A DNA stretch of 64,000 bases from NCBI GenBank assembly GCA_026388315.1, contig JAPLKA010000110.1, forward strand, positions 86,545 through 150,544. Direction: 5' to 3'. The notes below the pieces were generated by a model. That model did no database searches. It was given only the letters and a program-made list of their open reading frames with translations, and was not told the origin of the DNA. Every line of letters starts with the position of its first letter. Position 1 is the stretch's first letter. Positions 1,192-60,075 of this stretch are shown piece after piece. The stretch is from Pseudomonadota bacterium. GTDB taxonomy: Bacteria > Desulfobacterota > Syntrophorhabdia > Syntrophorhabdales > Syntrophorhabdaceae. The translations under genes were made by a program, and so were the position numbers.

Positions 1192-1701
1192 ATGGATCTG
1201 GAAATGATCAGGAATTTTCGGGAAAAATTACGAAAGTTGGAAAGAGAAATCGGGTGGCAGCTTAAAAGTGATACCGAATGCTGTGGGGTTACCCTTGCTC
1301 AATGCCACATTATCGTGGAGATCGGCAATACCGGTGAAACTTCCGTAATCGACCTTGCCACTGTCCTTGGGCTCGATACCAGCACGTTGAGCAGACATAT
1401 CAATGGAATGGTTGATGTCGGCTTGGTAAACAGGGTCCTGAACCCGAAAGACCGGCGTTATGTGTCGATAACTCTGACCGAACAGGGACAAAAGGTCTAC
1501 CAATCCATTGAGGACATATGCAACTCAAAATACACAAAGGTCTTCGAATTTATCCCGCAGGAAAAGCACCAACAGGTCTTGGAATGTTTCAACCTGCTTG
1601 TTCATGCTGTTACTGAGGCAAGAAAAGCAGTGGGTGCCCTTGACTGCTGTCAGGCCAGCCTTTTCGAGAAAGGCGAGGAGGTTATTCCCCATGTCCGTTG
1701 A
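1192..1701 (+). CDS. MarR-family transcriptional regulator upstream of hgcAB
   Basis: A 169-residue winged-helix protein. The recognition segment (about residues 50-90: DLATVLGLDTSTLSRHINGM, then the wing NPKDRRYVSITLTEQG) is typical of MarR. It has a CC pair near residue 28 and a second pair (DCC) near residue 151 in the C-terminal dimerisation helix, so a thiol- or metal-sensing role is possible but unproven. The start has a good RBS (ggagg) 8 bases upstream. Its last 11 bases overlap hgcA, implying co-transcription and translational coupling. Regulators described near hgcAB are, as I recall, often ArsR-like, so a MarR here is of interest. Confidence 0.88.
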   Translation: MDLEMIRNFREKLRKLEREIGWQLKSDTECCGVTLAQCHIIVEIGNTGETSVIDLATVLGLDTSTLSRHINGMVDVGLVNRVLNPKDRRYVSITLTEQGQKVYQSIEDICNSKYTKVFEFIPQEKHQQVLECFNLLVHAVTEARKAVGALDCCQASLFEKGEEVIPHVR

Positions 1702-2878
1702 AAATAAGTCAAGTCCGTGCTGCGGCGGGCAACCGTCTACGGTTTTTAAGATACTGCCATGTTGTGACCAGCAAAAGACCGGCAACGCGGAACTTTCATC
1801 ATCCTGCGCGGCTCCGGAATCTGAGCAGGTTAATTCAGGACAGACTTTATCATCTTTCCGTTCCCGACCTTATTGGATCAAGGGATTTGTTGATACAGCG
1901 GCAGGTAAAATTCCGCTGATTGACACATCTTTGGTATTCCGGGATATTTCGGGTGCCTGGAAAGCCCGGTGGGGGATCAATCGCATGAACTATAATATCT
2001 CTCCCGGACTTTACGGTGTTGGAAATCCCGATGACACGTCCCCGGTTCTGGTTACTGCCAATTACAAAATGAGTTTTGACAGTCTTAGAAAAGAACTATC
2101 CGGCCTTGATGCCTGGGTCATGGTCATCGACACCAATGGAATTAATGTCTGGTGCGCGGCAGGCAAAGGGACTTTCGGCACTGAAGAAATTGTAAAACGT
2201 ATCAATGTGGTTTGCCTCTCCCGGATCGTTTCTCACCGTACGATCATAGTTCCTCAACTGGGGGCGCCCGGGGTGGCTGCCCATGAAGTGCGAAAGCAAT
2301 CAGGTTTTAAGGTGGTCTACGGACCTGTAAAGGCCTGTGACATTAAGGAATTCCTTGATGCCGATATGAAGACCACCAGGGAAATGAGGGTCGTTGAATT
2401 CGGTTTCTTTGATCGGCTTTTCTTAACACCTATCGAGGTAGTCGGCACCTTGAAGCCACTTGCGATGATCACTGCTGCGCTTTTTATTGCCCACATAGCG
2501 GGACTGATCACAGTTACTTTCTCCGGTCTGTACCCGTTCATCGGCGCGATCCTGATCGGTGTGGTCATAAGCCCGGCATTGTTGCCATGGATACCGGGGC
2601 ATGCCTTTTCATTGAAAGGTTGGCTTATGGGCCTTCTCTGGGCTTTAGTGGTCCTTTATTTGAAAGGTGGTTTTTTTCAACATGACGGGGTATTCAACGG
2701 TTTGACCCTGCTTCTCCTTTTGCCGGCAATATCGGCTTTTCTGGCTTTGAACTTTACCGGGGCTTCCACCTATACATCCCTTTCCGGTGTTAAAAGTGAA
2801 ATGCGATTCGCTATACCGGCCATAATCACTTCTGCATCGGTAGGCATAGTGTTATGGCTGGCCGGACGTTTTATATAA
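1691..2878 (+). CDS. hgcA: HgcA, corrinoid protein of mercury methylation
   Basis: 395 residues from the ATG at 1691, chosen because gaggaggtt (1675-1683) precedes it. HgcA transfers a methyl group from a corrinoid cofactor to Hg(II). The diagnostic cap-helix motif NVWCAAGK is at residues 152-159, with Cys155 the expected cobalt ligand. The cobalamin-binding domain covers about residues 60-235; about five membrane helices follow (roughly 255-275, 278-297, 310-326, 336-354, 373-392). The N-terminal 60 residues are an extension rich in Cys (C10, C11, C24, C25, C39), which moves the cap-helix Cys well beyond position 93 of the Desulfovibrio ND132 protein. Followed after 20 bases by hgcB. Motif, topology and partner together make the call firm. 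Confidence 0.96.
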   Translation: MSVENKSSPCCGGQPSTVFKILPCCDQQKTGNAELSSSCAAPESEQVNSGQTLSSFRSRPYWIKGFVDTAAGKIPLIDTSLVFRDISGAWKARWGINRMNYNISPGLYGVGNPDDTSPVLVTANYKMSFDSLRKELSGLDAWVMVIDTNGINVWCAAGKGTFGTEEIVKRINVVCLSRIVSHRTIIVPQLGAPGVAAHEVRKQSGFKVVYGPVKACDIKEFLDADMKTTREMRVVEFGFFDRLFLTPIEVVGTLKPLAMITAALFIAHIAGLITVTFSGLYPFIGAILIGVVISPALLPWIPGHAFSLKGWLMGLLWALVVLYLKGGFFQHDGVFNGLTLLLLLPAISAFLALNFTGASTYTSLSGVKSEMRFAIPAIITSASVGIVLWLAGRFI

Positions 2879-2898: not shown

Positions 2899-3204
2899 AT
2901 GAAACACCATTATCTGAAAAACGTGGTTACCCTTCATTTGGACGAAGATAAATGCACTGGTTGTGGAATGTGCATCGAGGTATGTCCTCATGAAGTGCTG
3001 GAGCTGTCCGGGAAAAAAGTTCAGATGCGCGACAGGGATGCATGCATGGAATGCGGTGCCTGCGCTAAAAATTGTTCCTTCTCCGCCATAAGCGTTAACG
3101 CCGGGGTTGGGTGTGCTTATGCGTTGATCCGGGGCGCGCTGACCAACAGCCAGCCCAGTTGCGATTGCTCTTCAACCGGAAGAAACGAAAGCTCCTGCTG
3201 CTAA
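2899..3204 (+). CDS. hgcB: HgcB, 2[4Fe-4S] ferredoxin of mercury methylation
   Basis: 101 residues from ATG 2899, preceded by caggaggg. Electron donor that reduces the HgcA corrinoid. Two cluster motifs: C19-C22-C25-C29 (CTGCGMCIEVCP) and C49-C52-C55-C59 (CMECGACAKNCS). The proline usual after the last Cys of the second cluster is replaced by Ser. The family-specific extra Cys in GVGCAYALIRGA is C72, and the protein ends with a vicinal C100-C101 pair, both hallmarks of HgcB. C88 and C90 are additional. Its position directly after hgcA confirms the call. Confidence 0.95.
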   Translation: MKHHYLKNVVTLHLDEDKCTGCGMCIEVCPHEVLELSGKKVQMRDRDACMECGACAKNCSFSAISVNAGVGCAYALIRGALTNSQPSCDCSSTGRNESSCC

Positions 3205-3380: not shown

Positions 3381-4088
3381 ATGGAAGATAAACAACAAGT
3401 AGATAGAACCTTCCACTATATAATGGAAACATTTATCGAAAGAGGCAGTGCGCCCCATTACACAGAAATAGCAAATACATTTGGCGTCAAACCGGATGAA
3501 GGCAAGAGATTTCTCCATGATCTGATCAACACACATGTAATGCCCATGTGGCTATACCCCGGTACGGACTTAATGGTGTCGTTTGCGCCGTTCAATAATC
3601 TGCCGACGCAATACCGCATTATGGTTGAAGGGCACCAAAAATGGTTTGCACAATGAGGTCTTGAAGCCCTGGCGGTCTGCTGGGTATTTCCGGGAAAGGC
3701 AGTCCAGATCGATGCGCCGTGCCTGGATTGCGGTGAGTCCATGCAAGTTGTTGTGCGTGATGGCGTCATACAAAATAAAACCCCTGTCGGCATCTGTGGA
3801 TATACCGATATACCCTTGAGTCAATGGGCAGAAAACTGGCCTTTCACATGAAGCCGTATCCATCTCTTCCGGTCGGAAGATCATGTGAGAAACTGGTCAG
3901 GATTTTGTTCAGGAACAGAGGAGGCAATTCTCCCTCTCTCGGATATGATGGCTATTATGAGTACACCCCGTCACAGGGCAAAACCAAGTGGTCATTACGT
4001 TTCCTCTGCGCCGGAATATGCGCCGATATTCTTTCAGAGACTAAAGGAAGTAACTCGAAATTCAGCATTCTGGAGCCCAAAGGTTTAA
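3381..4088 (+). CDS. organomercurial lyase (MerB)-like selenoprotein with two in-frame UGA codons
   Basis: Conventional translation stops at codon 92 (UGA, 3654-3656), but the frame continues with family-like sequence through a second UGA at codon 157 (3849-3851) to TAA at 4086, giving 235 residues. Aligned by eye to E. coli R831b MerB (catalytic C96, D99, C159; structural C117), Sec92 falls on C96 (KWFAQ-U-GLEAL against YAWCALDTL), Glu95 on D99, Cys113 on C117 with the same 21-residue spacing, and Sec157 on C159 (U-SRIHLFRS against CCHVHFFAS). Residues 1-60 resemble the N-terminal helical domain. Each UGA has a downstream hairpin with GGUC in the loop. A weak RBS (aagaaagg) precedes the ATG, and TATAAT at 3300-3305 could be a -10. 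MerB splits C-Hg bonds, so the hgcAB neighbourhood fits. The substrate is unproven; the alternative is a pseudogene. Confidence 0.85.
3657..3685 (+). promoter_or_regulatory. putative SECIS for Sec92 of the MerB-like gene
   Basis: GGTC (3674-3677) starts 18 nt after the UGA and lies in the loop of a short imperfect stem (cccTg 3667-3671 with cTggg 3680-3684, one mismatch). E. coli fdhF has a GGUC loop at nearly the same distance. This is the weakest stem of the four in the window. Confidence 0.55.
3852..3880 (+). promoter_or_regulatory. putative SECIS for Sec157 of the MerB-like gene
   Basis: Perfect 6-bp stem TCTTCC (3865-3870) / GGAAGA (3875-3880) enclosing a GGTC tetraloop (3871-3874), which starts 20 nt after the UGA at 3849-3851. 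This fits the bacterial SECIS layout. Confidence 0.7.
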
Positions 4089-4314: not shown

Positions 4315-4716
4315 ATGGCATCTATCAAGATGGTTCCCGAAGAAGAAGCCACAGGCAAGGTCAAAGATGTTTACGATGACATCAAGTCCCGCCTCGGAAT
4401 TGATTTTGTTCCTAATCTTTACAAGGTCATGGCTTCTAAGCCAGGCTACTTGGAAGCCAATTGGAACAAAGTCAAGGCGGTGATGATTGAACCAGGCAAG
4501 CTCGACCGTTTGACGAAAGAGATTATTGCGGTTGCTGTGTCAGCGGTCCTTGGCTGTGAATATTGACTCGCTGTTCACACTTCTGCGGTGCAGAAGTTAG
4601 GGTTAGATGATGAAGCCGTGCTCGAACTCATGGCAGTTGTGGATTTGTTCAGTGGTTTCAACAAGCTGATGGATGGGTTACGAGTCGAAGCAGACGAGAA
4701 ACCCTGGTATGGCTGA
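4315..4716 (+). CDS. AhpD-like (carboxymuconolactone decarboxylase fold) selenoprotein, CxxU
   Basis: Starts at ATG 4315 behind aaggag. Conventional translation ends after 83 residues at UGA 4564-4566, exactly where AhpD-family proteins carry the second Cys of CxxC: GCEY-U-LAVH. The frame then continues to a normal stop at 4714 (133 residues, Sec84, His88 four residues later as in the AhpD active site). A perfect 8-bp hairpin with a GGT loop follows the UGA. AhpD-like proteins are peroxidase or thiol-redox partners, and Sec forms of this family are, to my knowledge, already described. Whether it serves the mercury genes is inference. Confidence 0.9.
4567..4597 (+). promoter_or_regulatory. putative SECIS of the AhpD-like selenoprotein
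   Basis: ACTTCTGC (4579-4586) pairs perfectly with GCAGAAGT (4590-4597) around a GGT triloop (4587-4589). The loop begins 21 nt after the UGA. This is one of the two clearest SECIS-like hairpins of the window. Confidence 0.82.
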
Positions 4717-5059: not shown

Positions 5060-5372
5060 ATGGATCAGGCCAAAGGAATATTGGCATATATTCAGGCAAG
5101 ACATCCCGATAAGGGGTATGATGTGGGTGGGGTGATGAGTGAGCTGATAAACTACAAACTGAGACCTGACGATCCATCGAACCAATTATTACACCAACAG
5201 TTGGTGTAATAATTGAGATCACCGGAAAGTCAATAACTACGCTGTTTAACGGACTTTCACTTTTAAAACTACCTCCTGAGATTCGGACGGCAGTTTCAGA
5301 TGGGAGACTGCCCGTTTCCCAGGGATATCTCTTTGCAGCTAACCTTGACTGCCCGGATCTTAGAAACAGTGA
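5060..5372 (+). pseudogene. parB-like relic with internal palindrome
   Basis: The first frame (from ATG 5060) reads MDQAKGILAYIQARHPDKGY, nearly identical to the intact ParB-like protein at 39656-40591. After the palindrome at 5183-5215 the homology resumes in another frame (GKSITTLFNGLSLLKLPPEI, then LPVSQGYLFAANLDCPD) and stops in a heptamer repeat. Both ends and the partition-protein N-domain are missing, so this is a frameshifted fragment. Confidence 0.85.
5183..5215 (+). repeat. perfect 16-bp palindrome in parB relic
   Basis: CAATTATTACACCAAC (5183-5198) and its exact reverse complement (5200-5215), separated by a single A. It sits at the position where each parB copy in this window carries a different palindrome. 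Confidence 0.85.
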
Positions 5373-19925: not shown

Positions 19926-22900
19926 TTACTTGTTTAACTCTGTCTTTTTGAATTCTCTCCCCTTCCAGATCATATAGATGGTAGGGTAGATGACCAGTTC
20001 CAGTATCATTGAAGTGATTACACCGCCAACCATGGGGGCTGCGATCCGCTTCATCACATCGGCCCCAGTTCCGTGACTGAACATGATAGGTATGAGACCG
20101 GCAAGGATGACGCTCACCGTCATGATCTTGGGGCGGATTCTCTTGACGGCGCCGTGCATAATGGCGTCTTTGAGATCGCTTAAACTCTTCAACCTCCCTT
20201 CCTTTTTCCACTGATCGTGGGCAAGCTCAAGATAGAGGAGCATGACGACCCCGGTCTCCGCATCAAGTCCCGCAAGGGCGATCAAGCCAACCCATACGGC
20301 TATGCTCATGTTGTAGCCGAGGAGGTAGAGAAGCCAGAATGAACCTACAAGGGAGAAGGGAACAGCGAGGAGGACGATAATAGTCTTCATCACCGACTTT
20401 GTATTAAAGTATATAAGAATGAAGATGATGAGGGCGGTAAGGGGTATAACGAGCTTCAGCCTCTCGTGTGTTTTTACGAGGTACTCATACTCGCCGCTCC
20501 ACTCGAGGCGGTAGCCCTCAGGTATTTTTAAGGTAGCAACGCTCTTTTTCGCCTCGTCTACATATCCTCCTACATCCCTGCCTGAAAAATCAATATAGAC
20601 ATAGGATGTAAGGAGGCCTTCTTCGCTCTTTATTGCCGTTGGGCCTTTTGTGATCTTTATATCTGCAAGTTCACCGAGGGGGATCTGGACAGATTGCGGT
20701 TTTAGAGATGCGAATTGGATTCCTGACCCCTGGCCCCTGACCCCTGACCCCATCGTTTCATTTGCTTGGCTGCTCCCCATCCCGCTTGTTGGCACGAGAA
20801 CCCTTTTCAATTTATCCACATTATCCCGCAATTCCCTTGCGTAGCGGATATTCACAGGATAACGCTGCCTCCCTTCCACGGTAGTCGTTACATTCATTCC
20901 GCCGATGGCGGCCTGTATCACATCCTGGACATCTTCCACGGCCAGACCGTACCGGGCAATCTCGTCACGTTTTATTTCAAAATCCAAAAAGTAGCCTGTT
21001 GTTACCCGCTCCGCATAGGCGCTCCGCGTACCCGGGATGTTTTTTACATGGTGTTCTATTTCAAGGCCGATCCGTTCGATCTCGTTAATATCGGGGCCAA
21101 GCACCTTAATCCCAACCGGGGTCCTGATCCCCGTAGAAAGCATATCCATACGGGCCTTAATGGGCATGGTAAAGGAATTGGCAACACCGGGAATGGTGAG
21201 GGCGTCGTTCATATCATTTTTCAGTTTTTCAACGGTCATGCCTTTTCGCCATTCCGATTCAGGCTTCAGGTTGATAATGGTTTCGAACATCTCAAGAGGC
21301 GCAGGGTCGGTGGCAGTCTCTGCTCGCCCCGCCTTCCCGAAGACCTGCGAGACTTCAGGCATCTTCTTCAATATTTTGTCCTGAAGCTGCAGAAGATCTG
21401 TTACGACGGAAATGGATGGCGCAGGCGCCGTGACAGGCATGAAGAAGAGTGTGCCTTCATAGAGAGGCGGCATGAATTCTGAGCCGAGTTTCATGAATGG
21501 ATAGGCAGTCATAAGGAGGATAATAAGGGCAGATATAAGCACAGTTTTCTTGAACCGGAGGGCGAACTCTGCGACCGGTGTATAGAGTTTGTGGAGGATG
21601 ATGCTGACGGGATTTTTTTCTTCAGGCCGTATCTTCCCCCGGATAAAGAGTGTCATGAGGACCGGCGTCAGTGTCACCGCAAGGAAGGCAGAAAAGAGCA
21701 TGGCAAAGGTCTTGGTATAGGCAAGTGGTCTGAAAAGTCTTCCTGCCTGTGCCTGAAGGGTAAATACGGGAAGAAATCCCACGGTAATAACAAGAAGTGC
21801 AAAGAAGAGCGATGGCCCCACCTCTTTGCATGCTTCGATAATAACATCAACCCGGCTACGGTGGTGTTCGGCGTCTTCTGACCCCTGACCCCCGATAGAC
21901 TCATTCGAGGGCAGGCCCCTGACCGCTGACCGCTGACTTTCCCATTCTTCCAGCTTCTTGTGGGCATTTTCCACCATAATAATGGAAGCATCAACCATGG
22001 CGCCGATGGCAATGGCAATACCGCTCAAGCTCATGATGTTCGAAGTGACCCCAAGGTAGTACATAGATATGAAAGACATAATGATTGCCATAGGTAATGT
22101 GAGTATGACGACAAGGGCGCTCGGCAGATGGAAGAGAAACACAATGCAGACCACGCTCACCGCAATGGAGAGCTTAACTATTTCTTCTTTGAGGGTGGCA
22201 ATGGAGCGGTGTATCAGGTCAGATCGGTCGTAAGTCACGACAATCTTTACCCCTTCAGGAAGGCCCGGCTCAATAGTCTTTTTAAGCTTTTCCTTTACCC
22301 TTTCAATGACATTGAGGACATTTTCGCCGAACCTTATTACGACAATACCTCCCGCCACTTCTCCCCTGCCGTCAAGCTCTGCAATGCCCCTTCTTATCTC
22401 AGGGCCGAGCTGCACCCGGGCTATATCTTTCAGGTAGATCGGTGTTCCGGCGGTATTTGCGCCAACAGAAATCTGTTCAATATCCTTTACGCCTTTTATG
22501 TACCCCTTTCCCCGCAGCATGTATTCAAAGCCTGAAAGTTCCAGAACCCTTCCCTCAACATCGAGGTTGCTCCTTCTCACGGCCTCCATGACCTTTGTTA
22601 TGGGGATATTGTACGCGGAGAGCCTGCTTGGGTCTACGGTGACCTGGTACTGACGTACATAGCCGCCGATACTGGCAACCTGGGAAACTCCGGGAACGCT
22701 CTCGATGGCGAGCTTCAGGTTCCAGTCCTGAATGGAACGCAATTGGGCAAGGTCATGCTTCCCCGTCTCATCGACAACGGCATAGGAGAATCCCCAGCCG
22801 ACGCTCGTTGCGTCAGGGCCGAGGACAGGATTGACATCGGCGGGGAGTTTGTTTTTTACTGCCTGGAGGTACTCCAGGACCCTGCTTCGCGCCCAGTAGA

Positions 22901-23207
22901 TATCGGTACCCTCCTGAAAAATGATGTAGATGAAAGAGCTGCCGAGAAAAGAAAAACCGCGTACCGCCTGCACCTTAGGCGCCGCAAGAAGCGTGGAAGA
23001 AATGGGGTAGGTAATCTGGTCTTCCACGAGGTCGGGGCTTCTCCCGGTCCATTCGGTATATATAATAACCTGCGTATCGCTGAGATCGGGTATGGCATCG
23101 AGGGGAGTATTCTTTAATGCCCAGTACCCCCAGGCTGCCAGGGCGAACACCATCAGGAAGACGATGAATTTATTCCGTGCACTGTATTCTATAATTTTTG
23201 CTATCAT
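19926..23207 (-). CDS. cusA: CusA-type heavy-metal RND efflux pump
   Basis: 1093 residues from ATG 23207 (MIAKIIEYSARN; the frame runs on upstream into a heptamer array). Twelve-helix RND protein with two periplasmic loops; PLDAIPDLSDTQVII, MVDASIIMVENAHK, the GSEFMPPLYEGTL and RMDMLSTGIRTPVG segments are those of the Cu(I)/Ag(I) CusA branch, with Met candidates for the metal path. Two insertions are unusual: after KKLEEWESQRSA and at VPTSGMGSSQAN there are Gly/Ser-rich stretches encoded by TCAGGGG heptamer arrays at 21878-21940 and 20722-20752. It follows the CusB- and CusC-like genes. Confidence 0.9.
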   Translation of the reverse strand: MIAKIIEYSARNKFIVFLMVFALAAWGYWALKNTPLDAIPDLSDTQVIIYTEWTGRSPDLVEDQITYPISSTLLAAPKVQAVRGFSFLGSSFIYIIFQEGTDIYWARSRVLEYLQAVKNKLPADVNPVLGPDATSVGWGFSYAVVDETGKHDLAQLRSIQDWNLKLAIESVPGVSQVASIGGYVRQYQVTVDPSRLSAYNIPITKVMEAVRRSNLDVEGRVLELSGFEYMLRGKGYIKGVKDIEQISVGANTAGTPIYLKDIARVQLGPEIRRGIAELDGRGEVAGGIVVIRFGENVLNVIERVKEKLKKTIEPGLPEGVKIVVTYDRSDLIHRSIATLKEEIVKLSIAVSVVCIVFLFHLPSALVVILTLPMAIIMSFISMYYLGVTSNIMSLSGIAIAIGAMVDASIIMVENAHKKLEEWESQRSAVRGLPSNESIGGQGSEDAEHHRSRVDVIIEACKEVGPSLFFALLVITVGFLPVFTLQAQAGRLFRPLAYTKTFAMLFSAFLAVTLTPVLMTLFIRGKIRPEEKNPVSIILHKLYTPVAEFALRFKKTVLISALIILLMTAYPFMKLGSEFMPPLYEGTLFFMPVTAPAPSISVVTDLLQLQDKILKKMPEVSQVFGKAGRAETATDPAPLEMFETIINLKPESEWRKGMTVEKLKNDMNDALTIPGVANSFTMPIKARMDMLSTGIRTPVGIKVLGPDINEIERIGLEIEHHVKNIPGTRSAYAERVTTGYFLDFEIKRDEIARYGLAVEDVQDVIQAAIGGMNVTTTVEGRQRYPVNIRYARELRDNVDKLKRVLVPTSGMGSSQANETMGSGVRGQGSGIQFASLKPQSVQIPLGELADIKITKGPTAIKSEEGLLTSYVYIDFSGRDVGGYVDEAKKSVATLKIPEGYRLEWSGEYEYLVKTHERLKLVIPLTALIIFILIYFNTKSVMKTIIVLLAVPFSLVGSFWLLYLLGYNMSIAVWVGLIALAGLDAETGVVMLLYLELAHDQWKKEGRLKSLSDLKDAIMHGAVKRIRPKIMTVSVILAGLIPIMFSHGTGADVMKRIAAPMVGGVITSMILELVIYPTIYMIWKGREFKKTELNK
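20722..20752 (+). repeat. in-frame heptamer array (TCAGGGG family) inside cusA
   Basis: cctgacccctggcccctgac-type units with period 7. On the coding strand four runs of four G separated by 3 bases can form a G-quadruplex. Translated as part of GSGVRGQGSGIQ. Confidence 0.8.
21878..21940 (+). repeat. second in-frame TCAGGGG array inside cusA
   Basis: Several tgaccccc/tgaccgc units flank a short unrelated core, adding about 20 residues between the fourth-helix region and VDVIIEACKEVGPSLFF. Reading frame is preserved. Confidence 0.75.
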
Positions 23208-23215
23208 ATTAAAAT

Positions 23216-23246
23216 CAGTGAATAGTCGATAGTGAATAGTGAATAA
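23216..23246 (+). repeat. heptanucleotide array upstream of cusA
   Basis: agtgaat/agtcgat/agtgaat/agtgaat units immediately before the cusA start. They keep the reading frame open 16 codons upstream of the chosen ATG. Confidence 0.78.
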
Positions 23247-23352
23247 CAAAAGCAATTTCTGTTAAATATCCACATAATGCACTCCACTGCCTCCTTTCAA
23301 TTTAAAATCAGTAAACAGTATTAATGAAGAGTGATTTTGGCTTTTCTTGCTC

Positions 23353-47049: not shown

Positions 47050-47073
47050 CAGTAAATGAAGGGGAGGCAAACC

Positions 47074-48978
47074 ATGGAAGGTGAAAGAATATCATGTCAT
47101 GAATCGATCCGTAAGGTATACGAGAGAATCAAAAGGGATGGGATGACCAATATCTGGGACCGTTATGAGGCTCAGGGACTCGGAGATAACCCCGATCAGA
47201 GGTGTCCTTTCTGCCAGGGCGGAGTGCGGTGTGACCTCTGTTCGAACGGCCCATGCAGGGCGGATGTTTCAAAAGACAAAAGGGGTGTCTGCGGCATTAC
47301 CGGAGATGGTATGGCAATGCGTATGATGCTGCTAAGGAATGTCATGGGCGCTTCTACATACCATTATCACACAGAGCAGACGATTAAGATGCTCAGGGCG
47401 GCGGCGAACGGTAAATCGCCGTTCACAATCAAGGATCCGGAAAAGTTGAGAACATTCGCAAAGCGGTTCGATATCCCCGAAGCATTCCCTGATGATGAGA
47501 TTGCAATGATGCTCTGCAACCATGTTGAGACAGATTTCAACAGGAAATACGATGAACCGAGCCATATCGTATTGACCCTTGCACCAAAGGAACGGGCAGA
47601 GACGTGGAGGAAGCTCGGCATATTTCCCGGCGGTATCTATGGTGAAATGATGTTTGCTACAAGTTCATGCCTTACCAATGTGGACGGGTATTATGTGAGC
47701 CTGGCATTAAAGGCCATGAGACTCTCCATCGCCACGGCATACCAGAGTCAGATCGTGAATGAGTACTGTCAGGACATTCTTTTCGGTACGCCACGACCGC
47801 ACAAAATGCGGGTTGACCTTGGTGTGCTTGATCCTGATTATGTAAATGTGCTTCCCAACGGGCATGAACCTTTCCTCGGTTTTGCCATGGTGCAGATTGC
47901 CAGAAAACCGGAATGGCAGGAGAAGGCAAAGGCTGTTGGCGCTAAAGGCCTCAGGATCATTGCAAATATCGAAACCGGCCAGGAGATGATCCAGCGCTGG
48001 GAGATGGATGATGTATTTTATGGATTTACCGGCAACTGGATTATGCAAGAGGCGGTAATGGCGAGCGGGTGCATAGACCTTTTCGCCTGCGATATGAACT
48101 GTTCCATGCCTATTGATCCCTTCTATGCAGAGAAGTATAAATTTAAGCTTATTCCTGTAAGCCAGCTCGTAGCCTTTGAGGGAGTCAGAGAGAGAATTGA
48201 CTATGATCCTGTGGAGGCCGAAGGGCAGGCTGCCCGGCTCCTTCAGATGGCCATCGATAATTTTAAGGAACGGAGGGCAACGATTGAGCCTGTGACAGGA
48301 CTATCCATGAGAGAGGCTATAGTTGGTTTTTCGACTGAGAGTATCATTGAAGCCCTGGGAGGATCGCCCGAGCCGTTACTTAAGGCAATAACGAGCGGGG
48401 CACTGCGCGGCGTGGCTGGGCTTGTGTCCTGTACATCCCTTCGCGATTCGGGACAGGACGTACACAGTGTTCGAATAGCAAAAGAACTGATTAAGCGTGA
48501 CATCCTCGTACTGTCTATGGGGTGTGGAAACGCCGCCATGCAGGTTGCCGGTCTGTGCAGCCTCGAAGCAAAAGAGCTGGCAGGGAATGGCCTTAAGGCG
48601 GTTTGCGAACTGCTCAAAATACCGCCGGTCCTCAGCTACGGTACATGCACCGATACTGGCCGTATCGCTGATTTTCTTGCTGCACTGTCGTATTCTTTGG
48701 GAGGCATCTCTGTTTCTGACCTTCCCGTGGCGGCAGTCGCTCCGGAATATATGGAGCAGAAGGCCACCATTGATGCGGTATTTGCACTCGCATTCGGTCT
48801 TTATACGTATGTCAATCCTGTTCCGACTGTAACGGGCGGACCGAACCTTGTGAAGCTCCTTACTGAGGACTGCAAGGAGATCACCGGTGGCGTATTAAAC
48901 GTTGAAAAAGACCCTATTAAGGCTGTTGACGGCATTTTGGCGCATATTGAGGAGAAGAGGGCGAAACTGGGGATTTAG
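47074..48978 (+). CDS. cooS: anaerobic CO dehydrogenase CooS
   Basis: 634 residues from ATG 47074 (gggagg upstream). Ni-Fe-S homodimer oxidising CO or reducing CO2. N-terminal CPFCQGGVRCDLCSNGPCR supplies D- and B-cluster ligands; His-rich YHYHTEQT, GCxNAAMQ and the C-cluster region follow. No acsB, cooC or cooF is adjacent. The MFS transporter downstream is separated by a repeat. Confidence 0.96.
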   Translation: MEGERISCHESIRKVYERIKRDGMTNIWDRYEAQGLGDNPDQRCPFCQGGVRCDLCSNGPCRADVSKDKRGVCGITGDGMAMRMMLLRNVMGASTYHYHTEQTIKMLRAAANGKSPFTIKDPEKLRTFAKRFDIPEAFPDDEIAMMLCNHVETDFNRKYDEPSHIVLTLAPKERAETWRKLGIFPGGIYGEMMFATSSCLTNVDGYYVSLALKAMRLSIATAYQSQIVNEYCQDILFGTPRPHKMRVDLGVLDPDYVNVLPNGHEPFLGFAMVQIARKPEWQEKAKAVGAKGLRIIANIETGQEMIQRWEMDDVFYGFTGNWIMQEAVMASGCIDLFACDMNCSMPIDPFYAEKYKFKLIPVSQLVAFEGVRERIDYDPVEAEGQAARLLQMAIDNFKERRATIEPVTGLSMREAIVGFSTESIIEALGGSPEPLLKAITSGALRGVAGLVSCTSLRDSGQDVHSVRIAKELIKRDILVLSMGCGNAAMQVAGLCSLEAKELAGNGLKAVCELLKIPPVLSYGTCTDTGRIADFLAALSYSLGGISVSDLPVAAVAPEYMEQKATIDAVFALAFGLYTYVNPVPTVTGGPNLVKLLTEDCKEITGGVLNVEKDPIKAVDGILAHIEEKRAKLGI

Positions 48979-52835: not shown

Positions 52836-53070
52836 ACAGTGAACAGCATAAAAGCAGTGAATAGTCGATGGTGAATAGTGAATAGTAAAAAACATAGAGA
52901 CAGTGAAAACAAAAAATTACCCTTTAGCTCATTCTTGAGCGAGAAGGGGAGGCTCGCACGGCCAAAAAAAGATGAAAATTGCTGTTTTAGCCGGGTGCCC
53001 GCGTTCTCCAAATCGGACAACGGAGTAGTAAGCAATCCCGCGGGCGGCAAGAGGGGGCGACGTGAGCCCC
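52836..53070 (+). repeat. heptamer array plus 145-bp GC-rich element
   Basis: 52836-52889 holds AGTGAAT-family units; 52926-53070 is the second full copy of the element seen at 46904 (agctcattcttgagcgagaagggg ... gggcggcaagagggggcgacg, then tgagcccc). Confidence 0.8.
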
Positions 53071-53088
53071 TCGAAATTGAGGGGGCCT

Positions 53089-55158
53089 ATGTTTAGGGCG
53101 GTGCCCATGATGCGGCTGCACGCGGTCGTGCTCGCTCAGGACGAGCGTGCCGTGCTCAAGGGCTTGGGCCGGTTGGGAGCAGTGCACCTGACGCGTACGC
53201 TGTCCGGGCCCGACACGGCACCTCTGGCCCCTATTGACCGCACCGGAGAACTGGCGCGATATGATCGTATCCGGGCTCGCGTTCAGGAACTTCGCAAATC
53301 ATGGGAAATCCCTCCTTCATCCAAAAAAATAGCTAAACTGGATAGCTCGTACAGCGAGCGAGAAGGGGAGGCCGGGTACCCGCTTGCGGGTGGAGCTTTG
53401 CTCGTGGAGGGGGCGACGATAGCCCCTTTGATAGAAATGACCTTGAATCAGGCCGAAGAGACCCTCCGCCCCATGGAACAACAGAGCGGAGACCTATTGG
53501 GGCATCGCCAGCGTCTCATGCAACGCCAGAAGGAGTTGGCCGCCACTTGCGAACGGGTATCGAGTTATCGCGGGCACGAGATTCCTTTGGACGGGTTCGA
53601 CCAATTTTCGTTCCTCCATTTTGTCACAGGGAGTTTACCGGCGCAGAACCTTGAGAGTCTTGGAAAAGAAGTCGGCGATAACGTGGCCCTCCTTCCCTTA
53701 GCCCAACAGAAAGGGCAACAGTCGCTTCTCGCGATCACCAACCGCCAGGGCCGACCCGCCCTGGAAAGGGCGTTGCAACAGGCGGGCTTTCAGCGCGAGA
53801 TGCTTCCTGTAGTCGAAGGCGCGACAGTGGACAGACTATCCGAAGAAGGAGAGAGAGAACAAGAACAGTTAGCGGTGGAATTGGAGCAATTGAACGGTAA
53901 GCTCAAGACGATTGCAGCCGGGTTCGCGCTACCCCTGGCAGAGATTGAAGGGTTTGCAGATATGGAGTGTCAACTCCTGGACGCAAGCCAGAAGTTCCCA
54001 CGCACGGAGGCTGCGGTTCTGATCACGGGATGGGTCCCCACGCGCGATGTAGCGGCTTTAGAGCAGCATATGGGAGAAATCACCGGCGGCCGGTATGCCA
54101 TTGAGACTGCTCTTCCGGACAATTCAACAGAGGAAGAGATCCCTGTCCTGCTGAGGCACTCGCGGTTGCTGCGTCCCTTCGAGATGCTGGTTTCAACCTA
54201 TGGTCTCCCGAACTATCGGGAGTTGGAGCCTACGCTGTTTGTGGCCCTGAGTTATCTCGTGATGTTCGGCATGATGTTCGGCGATGTGGGACATGGAGCT
54301 GTCCTCGCCGCGTGCGGTTTGATCGCTCTGCTTGCCGGCCGCTCCGAAAAGGCTCGGGATGTTGGTCTGCTCCTTCTTTTCGGGGGCTCGTCCAGCATCG
54401 TTTTTGGCGTGGTGTATGGCAGCTACTTCGGTATCGAAGTATTCAAGAAGTACGCCCTTTGGCATGATCCTCTGGAGGGTGACCCTATGAGTCTCATGTA
54501 CGGCGCTATTGGGATTGGCATCGCCATGATCAGCCTCGGTATCATATTGAATGTCATCAATCGTTTTCGACGGGGCGACGTGATCGGCGCTATCCTCGAT
54601 AAGTTCGGTCTCATCGGCCTTCTGTTCTACTGGGGAGTGTTGGCCCTGTTGATGAATGGGGCGGCTATCCGGTCGTGGGGACTCATGGGCGTATCAGTCG
54701 TTCTGTTTCTCGTAGTGCCCATCGTTGGTTGGTCCCTCAAGGAGCCCATAGAACATTTATTGAGCCACGCCGGCGGCGGACACAATGGGGCGAACGGCGG
54801 GCTGGCCGGCGCCATTATAGAATCGTGCGTCGGGGCTTTTGAGGCGGTTCTCAGCTACCTTGCGAACACCATAAGTTTTGTCCGTCTTGCGGCCTATGCC
54901 ATGAGTCACGCAGCGTTGCTTTTTGCCGCTTTTATGCTGGCTGCGGAGGTTAGAAATTTTCCTGTCGGGGGCAGTCTGTGGAGTCTGTTGGTCATCATCA
55001 TCGGCAATCTCATTGCAATTGTCCTGGAAGGGGTTATCGCTTCAGTGCAGGCGTTGCGTCTTGAATATTATGAGTTCTTCGGGAAGTTTTTTTCCGGCAG
55101 CGGCCAACCCTTTGAGCCGTTTCGTTTGGCCCGGAATGATAAGACTTCAGTGCCATGA
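53089..55158 (+). CDS. V/A-type ATPase membrane subunit I (a-like)
   Basis: 689 residues from ATG 53089 (gaggggg upstream). Soluble N-half (1-370) and seven or eight helices in the C-half, including FVRLAAYAMSHAALLF with the conserved Arg for proton/sodium transfer. Residues about 85-115 (SSYSEREGEAGYPLAGG, LLVEGAT) come from an in-frame copy of the GC-rich repeat (53344-53426). Confidence 0.9.
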   Translation: MFRAVPMMRLHAVVLAQDERAVLKGLGRLGAVHLTRTLSGPDTAPLAPIDRTGELARYDRIRARVQELRKSWEIPPSSKKIAKLDSSYSEREGEAGYPLAGGALLVEGATIAPLIEMTLNQAEETLRPMEQQSGDLLGHRQRLMQRQKELAATCERVSSYRGHEIPLDGFDQFSFLHFVTGSLPAQNLESLGKEVGDNVALLPLAQQKGQQSLLAITNRQGRPALERALQQAGFQREMLPVVEGATVDRLSEEGEREQEQLAVELEQLNGKLKTIAAGFALPLAEIEGFADMECQLLDASQKFPRTEAAVLITGWVPTRDVAALEQHMGEITGGRYAIETALPDNSTEEEIPVLLRHSRLLRPFEMLVSTYGLPNYRELEPTLFVALSYLVMFGMMFGDVGHGAVLAACGLIALLAGRSEKARDVGLLLLFGGSSSIVFGVVYGSYFGIEVFKKYALWHDPLEGDPMSLMYGAIGIGIAMISLGIILNVINRFRRGDVIGAILDKFGLIGLLFYWGVLALLMNGAAIRSWGLMGVSVVLFLVVPIVGWSLKEPIEHLLSHAGGGHNGANGGLAGAIIESCVGAFEAVLSYLANTISFVRLAAYAMSHAALLFAAFMLAAEVRNFPVGGSLWSLLVIIIGNLIAIVLEGVIASVQALRLEYYEFFGKFFSGSGQPFEPFRLARNDKTSVP
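53344..53426 (+). repeat. GC-rich element read in frame inside the subunit I gene
   Basis: agctcgtacagcgagcgagaagggg ... gagggggcgacgatagcccc is a shortened copy of the element at 46904 and 52926, inserted without breaking the frame. Confidence 0.78.
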
Positions 55159-55361
55159 GCATAAGGGAAGGCCTGAAGCTGGTTGTGCCGTAGGACGTAG
55201 GACGTACAGTCGCTGCGCTCCTTCGGACGTAGGACAAGAAAGGCCTTTACGTCCAAGCGAAGCGGACGTCCAAGCAAACTCAGGTGAGCGGACATCCCAC
55301 GTTCATACGGGAATCAAAAGAGGGGACAAGCGTGAGTCCCAGAAAAAATCGGAGGTGTCAC
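55159..55361 (+). repeat. intergenic GGACGTA repeats before subunit K
   Basis: gtaggacgtaggacgtac and cggacgtaggac (period-7 GGACGTA units) with inverted tacgtcc copies, then a partial gcgtgagtccc element. Confidence 0.65.
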
Positions 55362-55706
55362 ATGATGAAGTTGTCATACTTGCGAATCGGATCAATCGGA
55401 GCGGTTCTCGTGGGTATAATCCTGCCCACTGCGGTAGCAATGGCACAGGAAACCGCGCGCGCGGGTGCACCGGCAGATATGGTATCGGCGTACAAAACCA
55501 TCGGCTTAGGTCTGGCAGCCGCTTTTGCCATCGCCATGAGCGTGCTCGGCGCAGGCCATGCTGTGGGGCGGATCGGGTCGGCAGCGCTCGGTGCAGCAGC
55601 GGAGAAACCTGAGTTGCTGACCCGCAGTATCCTGTTCGTGGCATTGGCAGAGGGGCTTGCCGTGCTTGGCTTCGCTATCGCCATGATGCTGATACAAAAA
55701 ATATAG
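55362..55706 (+). CDS. V/A-type ATPase proteolipid subunit K
   Basis: 114 residues from ATG 55362 (ggaggtgtc upstream). Signal-like helix (8-25, LPTAVAMAQ), then two helices with ALGAAAEKPE in the loop and the ion-binding Glu in FVALAEGLAVLG. A single hairpin, not the doubled 16-kDa form. Confidence 0.9.
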   Translation: MMKLSYLRIGSIGAVLVGIILPTAVAMAQETARAGAPADMVSAYKTIGLGLAAAFAIAMSVLGAGHAVGRIGSAALGAAAEKPELLTRSILFVALAEGLAVLGFAIAMMLIQKI

Positions 55707-55717
55707 GGAGTCAATCA

Positions 55718-56026
55718 GTGAAGTTTTATTGCATTGCCGACGAAGACACAGTGCGCGGGTTCCGGTTGGCAGGCATCGGTGCGCAGGTTGCAGCAACGGC
55801 GGAAGAAGCCCGGACTGCCATCGATGACGTTGCAGCCCGACCCGACTGTGGAGTCATTATCATCACCGAAAAGGTGGCAGCCTGGATTCGGCCACAAATA
55901 GAGATGATGCGACTGGAGCGGGACCGCCTGCTGATTGTCGAGATACCCGGGCCGGAAGGACCGCTGTCAGGGCGTAAGAGCCTGCGAGAATTCGTACAGG
56001 AAGCTGTGGGTGTGAGTGTTGGCTAA
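55718..56026 (+). CDS. V/A-type ATPase subunit F
   Basis: 102 residues, Rossmann-like: FYCIADEDTVRGFRLAGI at the start and VIIITEKVAAWIRPQIE in the middle. Central-stalk regulator subunit. Confidence 0.88.
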   Translation: MKFYCIADEDTVRGFRLAGIGAQVAATAEEARTAIDDVAARPDCGVIIITEKVAAWIRPQIEMMRLERDRLLIVEIPGPEGPLSGRKSLREFVQEAVGVSVG

Positions 56027-56038
56027 GGGGGTATGTGG

Positions 56039-56701
56039 ATGATAATGGATCAAAACTCTACAGAAGTATTGCGCGAAGAAATCCTCGCAGACGCCCGGAG
56101 AGAGGGCGAGGAAATTGTCATTCGCGCGAGGCGGGACGCAGAAGTTTTTTTAACCGGTGCCGTGGCCGAAGCTGACCGGGTACGACAGGAGCGGCTTGAC
56201 CAGGCCCGTGCAGAGGCCGCTCGCCAGAGTGCATTAATTCTGGCTACGGTTCCCGTCGAAACGGGCCGGCTGCGGGCGGCACGCATCGAAGCGCTGCTTG
56301 AGTCTGTGTACTGGGAAGTGCACCAACGATTGCTGGCCCGCGAAGGCTTTGAATATCGCGAAACCGTGATCGCCCTTGCTTCTCATGCCATAATTCAGAT
56401 GGCAGGCGTTGACTTTGTCGTGAAGCTTTCGGAGGAGGATCATACTATTCTGGGCGACGGCCTGGCCGGAGAAATTGCGCACCGCGTCGGCCGGCCGGTG
56501 AGTATTGTTGTTTTGCAGGAACCTGGCATTATGGGCGGCGGTGTTGTTGTTGAGGATGCGGAGGCTCGCCAGGTGTGGGATAACCGCCTTGCGAAGAGGC
56601 TGGAACGACTGTGGCCGGAACTGAGGCGACAGATAGCCGTGCAGGCATCTTTCGTCCCGGCACACATAAACGTCGACGTGAGCCCCGGAAACAGTGAATA
56701 G
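56039..56701 (+). CDS. V/A-type ATPase peripheral-stalk subunit E
   Basis: 220 residues; N-terminal coiled coil (LREEILADARREGEEIVIRA) and C-terminal globular part. The start could be 56033, 56039 or 56045; 56039 has the best distance to ggggg. The end NVDVSPGNSE is encoded by a GC-rich repeat plus heptamers. Confidence 0.82.
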   Translation: MIMDQNSTEVLREEILADARREGEEIVIRARRDAEVFLTGAVAEADRVRQERLDQARAEAARQSALILATVPVETGRLRAARIEALLESVYWEVHQRLLAREGFEYRETVIALASHAIIQMAGVDFVVKLSEEDHTILGDGLAGEIAHRVGRPVSIVVLQEPGIMGGGVVVEDAEARQVWDNRLAKRLERLWPELRRQIAVQASFVPAHINVDVSPGNSE

Positions 56702-56824
56702 TGAATGGTATACAGTGAATAGTAAAGACAGAAAGATTGAATATAACACCACCCTTTAGCTCATTCTTGAGCGAGAGGGGAAGGCTCCGGCAGCTTTGCT
56801 GCTGGAGGGGGCGACGTGAGCCCC
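56691..56824 (+). repeat. heptamers plus short GC-rich element before subunit A
   Basis: 56691-56724: AGTGAAT units spanning the subunit E stop. 56758-56824: agctcattcttgagcgag ... gagggggcgacgtgagcccc, a shorter copy of the 145-bp element. Confidence 0.78.
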
Positions 56825-56845
56825 AGAAAAAGGAGGAGATGGCCC

Positions 56846-58657
56846 ATGACTACCGTTACCAGGAATGCTGAACCGGTGGTTACCCGCATCAGCGGTCCCA
56901 TCGTAACCGCTGTGGGTATGTACGCAGCGCAGATGTACGAAGTCGTGCAGGTAGGCAGTCTGGGCCTGGTGGGAGAAGTCGTGCGGCTGGTTGGCGATCA
57001 TGCCACCATCCAAGTCTATGAGGACACCACTATGTTGAAGCCCGGAGCGCCGATCCGGTGCACGGGCGCGCCCTTGTCCGTGTGGCTTGGCCCCGGACTG
57101 GTCGGCAGCATTTACGACGGCATTCAGCGTCCGTTGCCAGGCATTCAAGCTCGTAGCGGCGCCTGGATCCGTCGCGGTGAAAAAGTGGACCCTCTGGACA
57201 CCAAGAAGCTCTGGACCTTTGAGCCACTGGTTAGCTCCGGTGAGATGGTGAGCGCCGGTCAGGCCATAGGCCGGGTCGTGGAGACACCGCTGGTCAATCA
57301 TCTGATTATGTCGCCTCCGGATGTGAGCGGCACCGTGTGGTCCATAGTCGACAAAGGGGATTACAGACTCCTCGATACCCTTGCCATTATCGAGACTGAA
57401 ACGGGCTCCCGTGACGTCACTATGCTTCAGCGGTGGCCTGTGCGGGTACCGCGTCCCATTCGCGAACGATTACGTATCACCGAACCGCTGATTACAGGAC
57501 AACGCATCATTGACACCTTTTTCCCCATCGGCAAGGGTGGCGCCGCGGCCATTCCGGGCGGATTCGGCACTGGAAAGACGATCACCCAGCACCAGCTCGC
57601 AAAATGGTCAGACGCCGAAATCATTGTCTTCATCGGTTGCGGGGAGCGGGGCAATGAAATGACTGATGTGCTCCGTGAGTTTCCGGAGCTTAAAGACCCC
57701 CGTTCCGGTCGGCCTCTGATGGAACGGACCATCCTCATCGCCAACACCTCGAATATGCCTGTGGCGGCGCGGGAAGTATCCATCTATACCGGCATTACCC
57801 TGGCCGAGTATTACAGGGACATGGGCTTCAGCGTGGCGGTCTTTGCCGACTCGACCAGCCGCTGGGCAGAGGCCCTGCGCGAACTGGCCGCGCGGTTGGA
57901 AGAGATGCCCGCGGAAGAAGGCTTCCCGGCGTCGTTGCCCACCCGGCTTGCGCAGTTTTATGAGCGCGGTGGCGCCGTAACTACGCTTGCGGGCGAGCAG
58001 GCTTCCGTGAGCATCGTGGGCGCCGTCAGCCCACCCGGCGGCGACTTTTCCGAACCCGTCACTCAGCATACACGCCGCTTTATCCGTTGTTTTTGGGCCC
58101 TCGATACGGAACTGGCCAATGCGCGACATTATCCTTCAATCCACTGGCTGCACTCGTATTCGGAGTATGTGGAGGATGTAGCTTCCTGGTGGAAGAAAGA
58201 GGCTCCCGACTGGATCGATCTGCGCACGGAGGCCCTGACTCTCCTCCAACGGGAGGATCGTCTCCAGCAAATCGTTAAGCTGGTGGGACCCGATGTCCTG
58301 CCCGACGGGCAACGCTTGATCCTTTTTATCGCCGAGATTATTAAAGACGGTTTTCTCGCCCAAAGTGCTTTTGACGAAAACGACATGTATTGCACACCTG
58401 AACGGCAGGTTATGCTCCTGCGCATTATTCTTACCCTCTATCGCAGGGGCCGGGACTTAATTCAAGGGGGTGTTCCGTTGGCGCGAATCCGCTCTTTAGG
58501 CTGTGTGCCCCACTTACTGCGGGCAAAGACGGCTTTTGGTAACAGAGAACTTGGAAAGCTTACGGAGCTGGAACGGAGGATCATGGAGGAGACAGAAACA
58601 CTGGCAAAAGAGTATACCAAGGAGGCTACCCTAATATGCACGCCACTTTTGACGTAG
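56846..58657 (+). CDS. V/A-type ATPase catalytic subunit A
   Basis: 603 residues from ATG 56846 (ggaggag upstream). P-loop GGFGTGKT (about residues 237-244), followed by [16 protein letters not shown], and catalytic-domain [14 protein letters not shown]. The bulge domain typical of A subunits is present (about 115-190). Confidence 0.95.
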
Positions 58658-60075
58658 AAGATCGGGGATTGCAGTACGTCGGTGCCTCGCGCATCGATGG
58701 ACCGTTGGTTGTGGTGGAACGGATTTGTGATGTAGGCTACGATGAAATTGTTGAGATTCTCGATTACGCCGGTCGTCCCCGTCTTGGCCGCGTCCTTGAT
58801 ATTTCTGAAACCCAGGCCGTGGTGCAGGTTCTCGAAGGAACAACAGGCCTCTCGAACCAATCCTTGCACGCCCGCTTCCTGGGGGAAAGTTTTCGCCTGC
58901 CCGTTTCACGGCAGATGTTAGGCCGCGTATTCGATGGCCTCGGCCGTCCGGCCGACGGTGGTCCGGCTGCGTTATCCGCGGAGCGGCGCGATGTGAATGG
59001 AATGCCCATAAACCCTTATGCCCGGCGTTATCCGCGGGAATTCATACAGACGGGTGTGTCGGCTATCGATGGGATGAATGCATTGGTCCGCGGCCAGAAG
59101 CTGCCAGTCTTTTCCGGAAACGGCCTGCCTCATGACCGCGTGTCCGCTCAGATCGTACGGCAGGCGCGCCTGCTGGAAGAAAAGGTCGAGTTCTCGATTG
59201 TCTTTGCCGCCATGGGCGTGAAGCATGATGTGGCCGAGTTTTTCATCCGTAACTTCCGGGATTCCGGCGCCCTTGCTCGCGCCGTCATGTTCTTTTCCCT
59301 GGCCGATGCGCCGAGTGTGGAGCGCCTTCTCACCCCGCGGGTCGCCCTGACCCTGGCGGAACACCTGGCCTTTGATTGCGGCCAGCACGTACTGGTGCTG
59401 CTGACGGATATGACAAATTACTGCGAAAGTCTGCGCGAAGTGGGCACAGCCCGGGGCGAAATCCCGGGCCGCAAAGGTTATCCGGGCTATCTCTACTCGG
59501 ATCTTGCCAGCATCTACGAGCGTGCCGGTCGCATCGAAGGCTCGCCGGGCTCGATCACTCAAATACCCATTCTGACCATGCCCTCGGACGATATCAGCCA
59601 TCCTGTACCCGATCTCACCGGCTACATCACCGAAGGGCAGATAGTGTTGGATCGCGATCTGTTTCAGCGTGGTGTTTACCCGCCCATTGCCGGCCTTCCA
59701 AGCCTGTCGCGTCTGATGAAGGATGGTGTGGGCAAAGGCTACACCCGGGAAGATCATCCGATTCTCGCAAGCCAGTTATTCGCGTGCTATGCCTACGTCA
59801 AGCGGGTGCGGGGGCTGGCCGATGTCATCGGCGAAGAGGAGTTGAGTACACTCGACAAGCAATACCTGAAGTTCGGCGAAGCCTTTGAAATGCGTTTCCT
59901 GAACCAGGGCGAATACGAGAATCGGTCTATCGAGACTACGCTCGAACTCGGCTGGGACGTGCTGTCAACATTGCCTAAGGATGAGTTACACCGCGTGAGC
60001 GACGCCCTGTTGAAGAAATACTACCATGAGAAAGAGGAGATTCCTGTCTGTGCGACCCCGCTTCAGGGGGCGTAA
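58636..60075 (+). CDS. V/A-type ATPase regulatory subunit B
   Basis: 479 residues. [20 protein letters not shown] with a degenerate P-loop (no GK[ST]), then [15 protein letters not shown] and arginine-finger region [15 protein letters not shown]. Overlaps subunit A by 22 bases. Confidence 0.95.

What the first reader, a model, noticed from the sequence alone, without database searches (positions are those of the whole stretch)
3381..4088. MerB-like protein with selenocysteine at both catalytic cysteine positions, next to hgcAB
Two in-frame UGAs (codons 92 and 157) fall exactly on C96 and C159 of organomercurial lyase. Cys113 keeps the 21-residue spacing of C96-C117, Glu95 replaces Asp99, and the frame continues family-like to a normal stop. 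Both UGAs have GGUC hairpins downstream. A double-Sec C-Hg lyase beside the mercury-methylation pair would be, to my knowledge, undescribed. Selenium binds mercury much more tightly than sulfur.
Basis: partly seen in the sequence, partly recalled or inferred. Interest (0 to 1): 0.97.

Follow-up and report, generated by a model that had tools for sequence, protein, structure and literature searches.

The report
Double-selenocysteine MerB-like lyase beside hgcAB
Next to a bacterium's mercury-methylation genes lies a gene for a MerB-family protein in which UGA codons sit at both positions of MerB's mercury-gripping cysteines; these are likely read as selenocysteine, so the protein would be a selenium-based enzyme predicted to break carbon-mercury bonds, one of a widespread family whose genes are often cut short in databases.

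Summary
Window 3381-4088 (+) encodes a 235-residue MerB-family protein with UGA at codons 92 and 157, which align with MerB Cys96 and Cys159. It is not a one-off. All 80 named relatives kept have UGA at codon 157; 68 also have UGA at codon 92 and 12 have TGC (Cys) there; none has TGG. Two Cys/Cys homologues are known. GGU-loop hairpins follow both UGAs far more often than synonymous shuffles allow, and at codon 92 they stand in only 3 of 13 Cys loci. All three segments are under purifying selection in close relatives. The own genome has selA, selB, selC and selD. The predicted fold (pLDDT 96.6) is MerB's. UGA = selenocysteine is near certain as an inference; no protein has been seen. The hgcAB link is not general: 0 of 80 named relatives' flanks. 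HgcA co-occurs in 17 of 23 carriers of the phylum sample, but within families the excess is weak. Most likely function: a selenolate-based organomercury lyase; the substrate is untested. Known relatives: MerB (Cys) and SaoL (MerB-like, listed with one Sec). No paper found describes Sec at both catalytic positions, but two key papers are not held. Graded a new variant of a known kind.

The parts
3381..4088 (+). MerB-like gene with two in-frame UGA codons (235 residues)
   Evidence: UGA157 in 80 of 80 and UGA92 in 68 of 80 named relatives
3654..3656 (+). UGA codon 92, aligned with MerB Cys96; predicted selenocysteine
   Evidence: TGA in 68 and TGC in 12 of 80 named relatives
3669..3683 (+). predicted SECIS hairpin for codon 92: 5-pair stem, loop GGUCU (3674-3678)
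   Evidence: hairpin in 56 of 73 TGA92 loci against 3 of 13 Cys92 loci; the window's own copy folds no better than shuffles
3849..3851 (+). UGA codon 157, aligned with MerB Cys159; predicted selenocysteine
   Evidence: TGA in 80 of 80 named relatives
3865..3880 (+). predicted SECIS hairpin for codon 157: 6-pair stem, loop GGUC (3871-3874)
   Evidence: 79 of 84 loci, paired changes in the stem; the window's own copy folds no better than shuffles
1691..2878 (+). hgcA, mercury methylation corrinoid protein, with a Cys-rich N-terminal extension
   Evidence: NF040863, 466.3 bits, cut-off 275
2899..3204 (+). hgcB, mercury methylation ferredoxin
   Evidence: NF040864, 128.6 bits, cut-off 99
1192..1701 (+). 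MarR-family regulator upstream of hgcA
   Evidence: PF01047; a 31% identical regulator lies just upstream of the MerB-like gene in L011
4315..4716 (+). AhpD/CMD-like gene with in-frame UGA at 4564-4566 (C-E-Y-U) and an 8-pair GGU hairpin at 4579-4597; predicted second selenoprotein

Best explanation
The gene encodes a MerB-family protein with UGA at both positions of MerB's catalytic cysteines, which is likely translated with selenocysteine at both and predicted to act as an organomercury (methylmercury) lyase. Shown here: the two UGAs, their alignment with Cys96 and Cys159, their conservation, the recurrent hairpins, purifying selection on both sides of each UGA in close relatives, and a complete set of sel genes. 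Inferred: that SelB delivers selenocysteine at both UGAs. Also inferred: that the two selenolates grip R-Hg+ as the two thiolates of MerB do, that Glu95 takes the place of Asp99 and protonates the carbon so that the hydrocarbon leaves, and that Hg(II) stays on the pair until passed on. In this genome that could detoxify methylmercury made by the adjacent HgcAB or coming from outside; no MerA reaches its model's cut-off here, so the mercury acceptor would have to be something else.
Against: No protein or activity is shown. The substrate is inferred from fold and residues only. In 80 named relatives the gene has no conserved partner and none has hgcA in its flanks. 24 of 49 carrier genomes searched lack an HgcA over cut-off. 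Within families the HgcA association is weak (stratified p = 0.07). No MerA over cut-off in the own genome. The window's own two hairpins fold no better than shuffles (z 0.85 and -0.25), and 17 of 73 TGA92 loci lack a GGU-loop hairpin. In two of ten further gene pairs the last segment is less constrained (pN/pS 0.195/0.287 and 0.317/0.497). 8 of 49 carriers show no SelB over cut-off; for four of these the best matches are fragments or ambiguous.
Confidence: 0.6

Rival explanations
1. Same double-selenocysteine MerB-fold enzyme, but the physiological substrate is another organometal or organometalloid (for example organotin, organoarsenic or a natural organometal as proposed for the SAO system), and the hgcAB neighbourhood is coincidental.
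For: hgcAB adjacency only here, 0 of 80 named relatives' flanks; 24 of 49 carrier genomes lack HgcA over cut-off; the best NCBIfam match is SaoL, named an organometallic lyase (42.4 bits, below its 140 cut-off).
Against: Both Hg-binding columns of MerB are kept, with an acid at the Asp99 column, and the fold match is to MerB itself.
Confidence: 0.25
2. The protein is a mercury or methylmercury trap, carrier or sensor: the two selenolates bind the metal tightly but do not cleave the C-Hg bond.
Against: The acid residue is nearly invariant (E95 in 120 of 121 rows), which a mere trap would not need; the fold match to MerB spans that N-terminal part too.
Confidence: 0.1
3. The UGAs are real stops: the locus is a pseudogene or a set of short ORFs.
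For: Standard reading gives in-frame pieces of 91 (3381-3656) and 67 residues (3885-4088) here.
Against: Same two UGAs in 68 of 80 named relatives; in the aligned part the only other in-frame stops are two near the start of L082; purifying selection downstream of each UGA in close relatives; hairpins and sel genes.
Confidence: 0.02
4. UGA is read as tryptophan or another residue by a changed code.
For: 28 of 120 database homologues carry Trp at both columns.
Against: 0 TGG at either codon in the 86 loci read; TGC or TGT (Cys) is the only other codon found there; the neighbouring AhpD-like gene apparently ends in TGA (4714-4716); SECIS-like hairpins.
Confidence: 0.01

Closest known systems
MerB organomercurial lyase (PF03243; NF009710; PDB 3f0o, 3f2f, 5c17)
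   Different: UGA at both catalytic columns; Glu for Asp99; 20-22% identity to the four MerB proteins aligned; below the NCBIfam MerB cut-off (21.9 against 193 bits); no mer gene among the neighbouring ORFs scanned.
SaoL, MerB-like organometallic lyase of the SAO system (NF040728)
   Same: MerB-like, listed as a selenoprotein in PMC13188914 (passages seen); best NCBIfam match here (42.4 bits).
   Different: Listed with one Sec in a CU motif; here two UGAs, in Q-U-G and T-U-S contexts; far below the SaoL cut-off of 140; none of the listed matches of the five neighbouring ORFs scanned is a sao model. Residue-level comparison with SaoL was not possible (its source paper is not held).
Selenoprotein forms of HgcA and HgcB (NF040863, NF040864)
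   Same: Selenium linked to mercury-methylation proteins; listed in PMC13188914.
   Different: In this window hgcA and hgcB are open without in-frame UGA; the UGA pair is in the MerB-like gene.
Bacterial SECIS element (E. coli fdhF type)
   Same: Short stem with GGUC apical loop close behind the UGA; meets the published bSECIS constraints on loop G and distance (16-37 nt; PMC13188914 passage).
   Different: Two such elements in one short gene; the fdhF comparison itself is recalled.

Membership tests
MerB family (Pfam PF03243) | Sequence match over Pfam's gathering score | tested here: met
   56.7 bits against 27, with Cys put for UGA
MerB family (Pfam PF03243) | MerB fold | tested here: met
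MerB organomercurial lyase (equivalog NF009710) | NCBIfam equivalog cut-off | tested here: not met
   21.9 bits against 193
MerB organomercurial lyase (equivalog NF009710) | Two Hg-binding catalytic Cys (96, 159) plus Asp99 | tested here: inconclusive
   Columns hold UGA, UGA and Glu; the residue at UGA is inferred
MerB organomercurial lyase (equivalog NF009710) | Cleaves C-Hg bonds | not testable with these tools
   needs an assay
SaoL (NF040728) | NCBIfam equivalog cut-off of 140 bits | tested here: not met
   42.4 bits, residues 12-138
SaoL (NF040728) | Lies in a sao operon | tested here: inconclusive
   Annotated neighbours are BioB, MarR, HgcA, HgcB, AhpD-like; sao models were not searched for separately
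Bacterial selenoprotein | In-frame UGA aligned with Cys in homologues | tested here: met
   codon 92: TGA 68, TGC 12 of 80 named loci; Cys/Cys homologues P0078, P0098; distant L094 TGC/TGT
Bacterial selenoprotein | Downstream bSECIS hairpin | tested here: met
   56 of 73 and 79 of 84 loci against synonymous shuffles, 3 of 13 Cys92 loci; single-sequence folding z-scores not significant
Bacterial selenoprotein | selA, selB, selC, selD in the genome | tested here: met
   all over their cut-offs
Bacterial selenoprotein | Selenocysteine shown in the protein | not testable with these tools
   needs 75Se labelling or mass spectrometry
Mercury methylation gene cluster (hgcAB) | Recurrent linkage to hgcAB | tested here: not met
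   0 of 80 named relatives' flanks of up to 6 kb, many cut by contig ends, hold HgcA

The most novel reading that the evidence does not exclude
A share of anaerobic mercury methylators (17 of the 114 HgcA-bearing genomes of the phylum sample) carry their own selenium-armed demethylase: a MerB whose two mercury ligands are both selenocysteine, the apparent original state of a large clade. It would break methylmercury without a mer operon and, in this genome, close a methylation-demethylation cycle within one gene cluster.
Probability: 0.3. Interest if true: 0.95.

Novelty: new variant of a known kind. Interest (0 to 1): 0.82.

Why it matters
Methylmercury budgets lean on inventories of hgcAB and merB genes. 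A MerB-like family whose genes are cut at codon 91 or 156 by software that treats UGA as a stop can be missed or truncated in such inventories (90 of the 120 best database homologues end at residue 156), and 17 of 23 carriers in the phylum sample also have hgcA. If it demethylates, anaerobic methylators would degrade methylmercury by a route not counted so far. For enzymology, natural UGA/UGA, Cys/UGA and Cys/Cys versions of one active site allow a direct test of what selenium does to C-Hg cleavage and Hg(II) release.

Tried and rejected
hgcAB as a conserved partner: rejected as a rule. The window's HgcA was searched in the 80 named loci (phmmer on ORFs of 50 residues or more; tblastn); only the own locus hit. 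HgcB hits in L033, L026 and L094 (33-38% identity over 52-60 residues) are taken as generic ferredoxin matches.

A shared operon: clustering of flanking ORFs of 70 residues or more (BLASTP E 1e-8, half coverage) gave no partner in more than 9 of 81 loci apart from pieces and other-frame readings of the gene itself; the acyl-CoA ligase type in 9 loci looks incidental.

Trp at both columns in database proteins as a sign of Trp: rejected, as no TGG occurs at either codon in the 86 loci read. The DNA of the 28 Trp proteins themselves was not available.

Viral contigs: no relative confirmed. Plasmids: of 24 records with a match at E up to 10, the 15 listed are at 22-31% identity; 14 lie under annotated MerB-type genes and one (H1) under no annotation; no close relative.

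HgcA co-occurrence as proof of function: the raw excess is strong (Fisher p 1.3e-5, own genome left out). Stratified by family it is p 0.07 (first computed as 0.08, before one missed genome was added). The strata were tallied by hand from listed genomes only: 18 carriers and 52 others; 4 carriers of one family without listed non-carriers were dropped, and most genomes without any HgcA-model match are unlisted.

Single-sequence hairpin stability: not significant for either MerB-like hairpin; the comparative test carries the claim.

Literature: seven searches bear on selenoproteins with MerB, mercury or hgcA and three on selenoproteome surveys. Seen as passages: PMC13188914, PMC9312934, PMC2398784, PMC9948709. 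PMC12013277: term search in its text, no hits. All others: listings only. Haft and Gwadz 2023 and Haft and Tolstoy 2025 are not held (known to me from reference entries in PMC13188914). A 2007 Olavius symbiont selenoproteome paper is recalled and was not seen; one relative (L076) is from an Olavius symbiont, so an earlier unnamed listing cannot be excluded.

Full report
Observation. The frame 3381-4088 (+) runs from ATG to TAA through two UGAs, codons 92 and 157. Read through with Cys, it is a MerB-family protein (PF03243, E 3.1e-15) that misses the cut-offs of both NCBIfam models it matches, SaoL (42.4 of 140 bits) and MerB (21.9 of 193). Aligned with four annotated plasmid MerB proteins, codon 92 falls on Cys96, Glu95 on the Asp99 position (Asp in three of the four, Ser in MerB2), Cys114 on Cys117, and codon 157 on Cys159 (MerB residue numbers are recalled).

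Conservation at the DNA level. A scan of species genomes with a family alignment found 143 relatives, of which the best 80 were kept. Reading their codons: 80 of 80 have TGA at 157; 68 have TGA and 12 TGC at 92. Of the other six loci read there, own L089 and L091-L093 are TGA/TGA, L094 is a distant protein with TGC/TGT, and L090, not read there, proved TGA/TGA and identical to L062. In the aligned part of 84 loci (L090 and L094 left out) the only other in-frame stops are two near the start of L082, and TGG occurs at neither codon in any of the 86. In the 5.8-billion-protein set 300 homologues pass E 1e-3 and the best 120 are listed. Of these, 90 have Cys92 and end exactly at residue 156, 28 have Trp at both columns, and 2 have Cys at both. 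The 28 Trp rows lie on contigs of at most 2713 bases and are best read as UGA translated by code 4. The length filter excludes proteins cut at codon 91, so these proportions are biased.

Hairpins. A stem with a GGU-containing loop was sought 15-24 nt behind the codon. It stands in 56 of 73 TGA92 loci (starting at +18) and 79 of 84 TGA157 loci (at +20); L085 is too short for the second count, and L090 duplicates L062 in both. In 200 synonymous-codon shuffles the means were 11.7 and 14.7 and the maxima 22 and 24. Elsewhere in the same genes it occurs at 292 of 16051 codon starts. At codon 92 only 3 of 13 Cys loci have it. The codon-157 stem shows paired changes (C-G to G-C, C-G to U-A, U-A to G-C). 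The misses at codon 92 mostly keep the stem but have AGU or CGU loops. Against this, the window's own two hairpins are not unusually stable for their composition (z 0.85 and -0.25). Spacing and loop fit the published bSECIS constraints (PMC13188914, passage).

Selection. Against six close relatives the three segments (1-91, 93-156, 158-235) show similar low pN (0.12-0.21) and high pS (0.46-0.85). In ten further pairs the contrast mostly holds, but in two of them the last segment is looser (0.195/0.287 and 0.317/0.497). Coding constraint continues through both UGAs.

Machinery. The own genome (131 contigs, completeness 100, contamination 3.7) has SelA 597.5 bits on the window's own contig, SelB 371.5, tRNA-Sec 72.6 and SelD 366, itself with an in-frame TGA. 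SelB is over cut-off in 41 of 49 carrier genomes searched and 2 of 14 controls.

History. On a 91-row tree the UGA/UGA state is spread over the whole family and Cys92 needs 7 changes (at least 5 forced by starred branches). Of the two Cys/Cys database rows, P0078 sits in a UGA/UGA clade and P0098 with two Cys/UGA rows from Rokubacteria. This fits repeated replacement of Sec by Cys; the root is for drawing only. Carriers include, by record titles, Deltaproteobacteria in the old sense, Alpha-, Beta- and Lambdaproteobacteria, Nitrospinae, Tectomicrobia, Rokubacteria, Poribacteria, Chloroflexi and Acidimicrobiia. The window's gene sits with L009 (75% identity), far from its own family and order members L091-L093, and 0 of 2 same-genus genomes have one: probably acquired horizontally.

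Mercury context. Here the order is MarR, hgcA, hgcB, MerB-like, AhpD-like (UGA form). In 80 named relatives no HgcA lies in flanks of up to 6 kb, many cut by contig ends. In the phylum sample 23 of 395 genomes have full-length two-UGA copies (27 places); two more have split copies, one a partial copy, and 15 only weak matches. 17 of the 23 have HgcA over cut-off against 97 of the other 372. Without the own genome Fisher p is 1.3e-5, but stratified by family p is 0.07. In 49 genomes behind the loci, 25 have HgcA over cut-off. The own genome has no other MerB match and no MerA over cut-off.

Mechanism. The conserved pair of Hg-ligand columns, the acid residue and the fold make protonolysis of a carbon-metal bond the best guess, with selenolates in place of thiolates. 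That selenolates bind Hg(II) more tightly, and are deprotonated at neutral pH, is established chemistry (recalled). Substrate, product acceptor and physiological role are inferred.

Known work. PMC13188914 lists SaoL as a MerB-like selenoprotein with one Sec, and Sec forms of HgcA and HgcB; PMC9312934 lists an alkylmercury lyase MerB-like selenoprotein (passages). No held paper found (searches in Tried and rejected) names a MerB-like protein with two Sec. The primary Haft papers are not held, so novelty is stated against reviews and NCBIfam release 20.0, not against those texts.

Noticed in passing
window 4315-4716 (+): AhpD/CMD-like gene with in-frame UGA (C81-E-Y-U84) and an 8-pair hairpin with GGU loop; a second predicted selenoprotein beside the first. 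In L024 a Cys-form relative (48% identity) lies directly upstream of the MerB-like gene.
   Followed up: partly
window 1691-1909: HgcA has a Cys-rich N-terminal extension of about 70 residues (two CC pairs) before the part matched by the HgcA model.
   Followed up: no
window 1192-1701 and L011 5444-5935: Cys-rich MarR-type regulator upstream of hgcA here; a 31% identical one directly upstream of the MerB-like gene in L011. It may sense the same metal.
   Followed up: partly
G000:C55:54250-55164 (-): selD of the own genome carries an in-frame TGA, so SelD is probably a selenoprotein itself.
   Followed up: no
proteins, e.g. P0003, P0010, P0116: Public protein sets hold this family as about 155-residue proteins cut at codon 157, or with Trp at the UGA columns; one (P0116) is named organomercurial lyase.
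   Followed up: yes
L094; G217, G390, G399, G158, G411: A distant MerB-like group without internal stops (open frames of about 300 residues) in the same phylum; L094 has Cys codons at both positions.
   Followed up: partly
window 5183-5215: Inverted repeat with 16-base arms and a one-base spacer, read by eye.
   Followed up: no
window 19926-23255 (-); 47056-48978 (+); 53062-60075 (+): CusA/CzcA-type metal efflux pump, anaerobic CO dehydrogenase catalytic subunit, and V/A-type ATP synthase subunits I, A and B.
   Followed up: no
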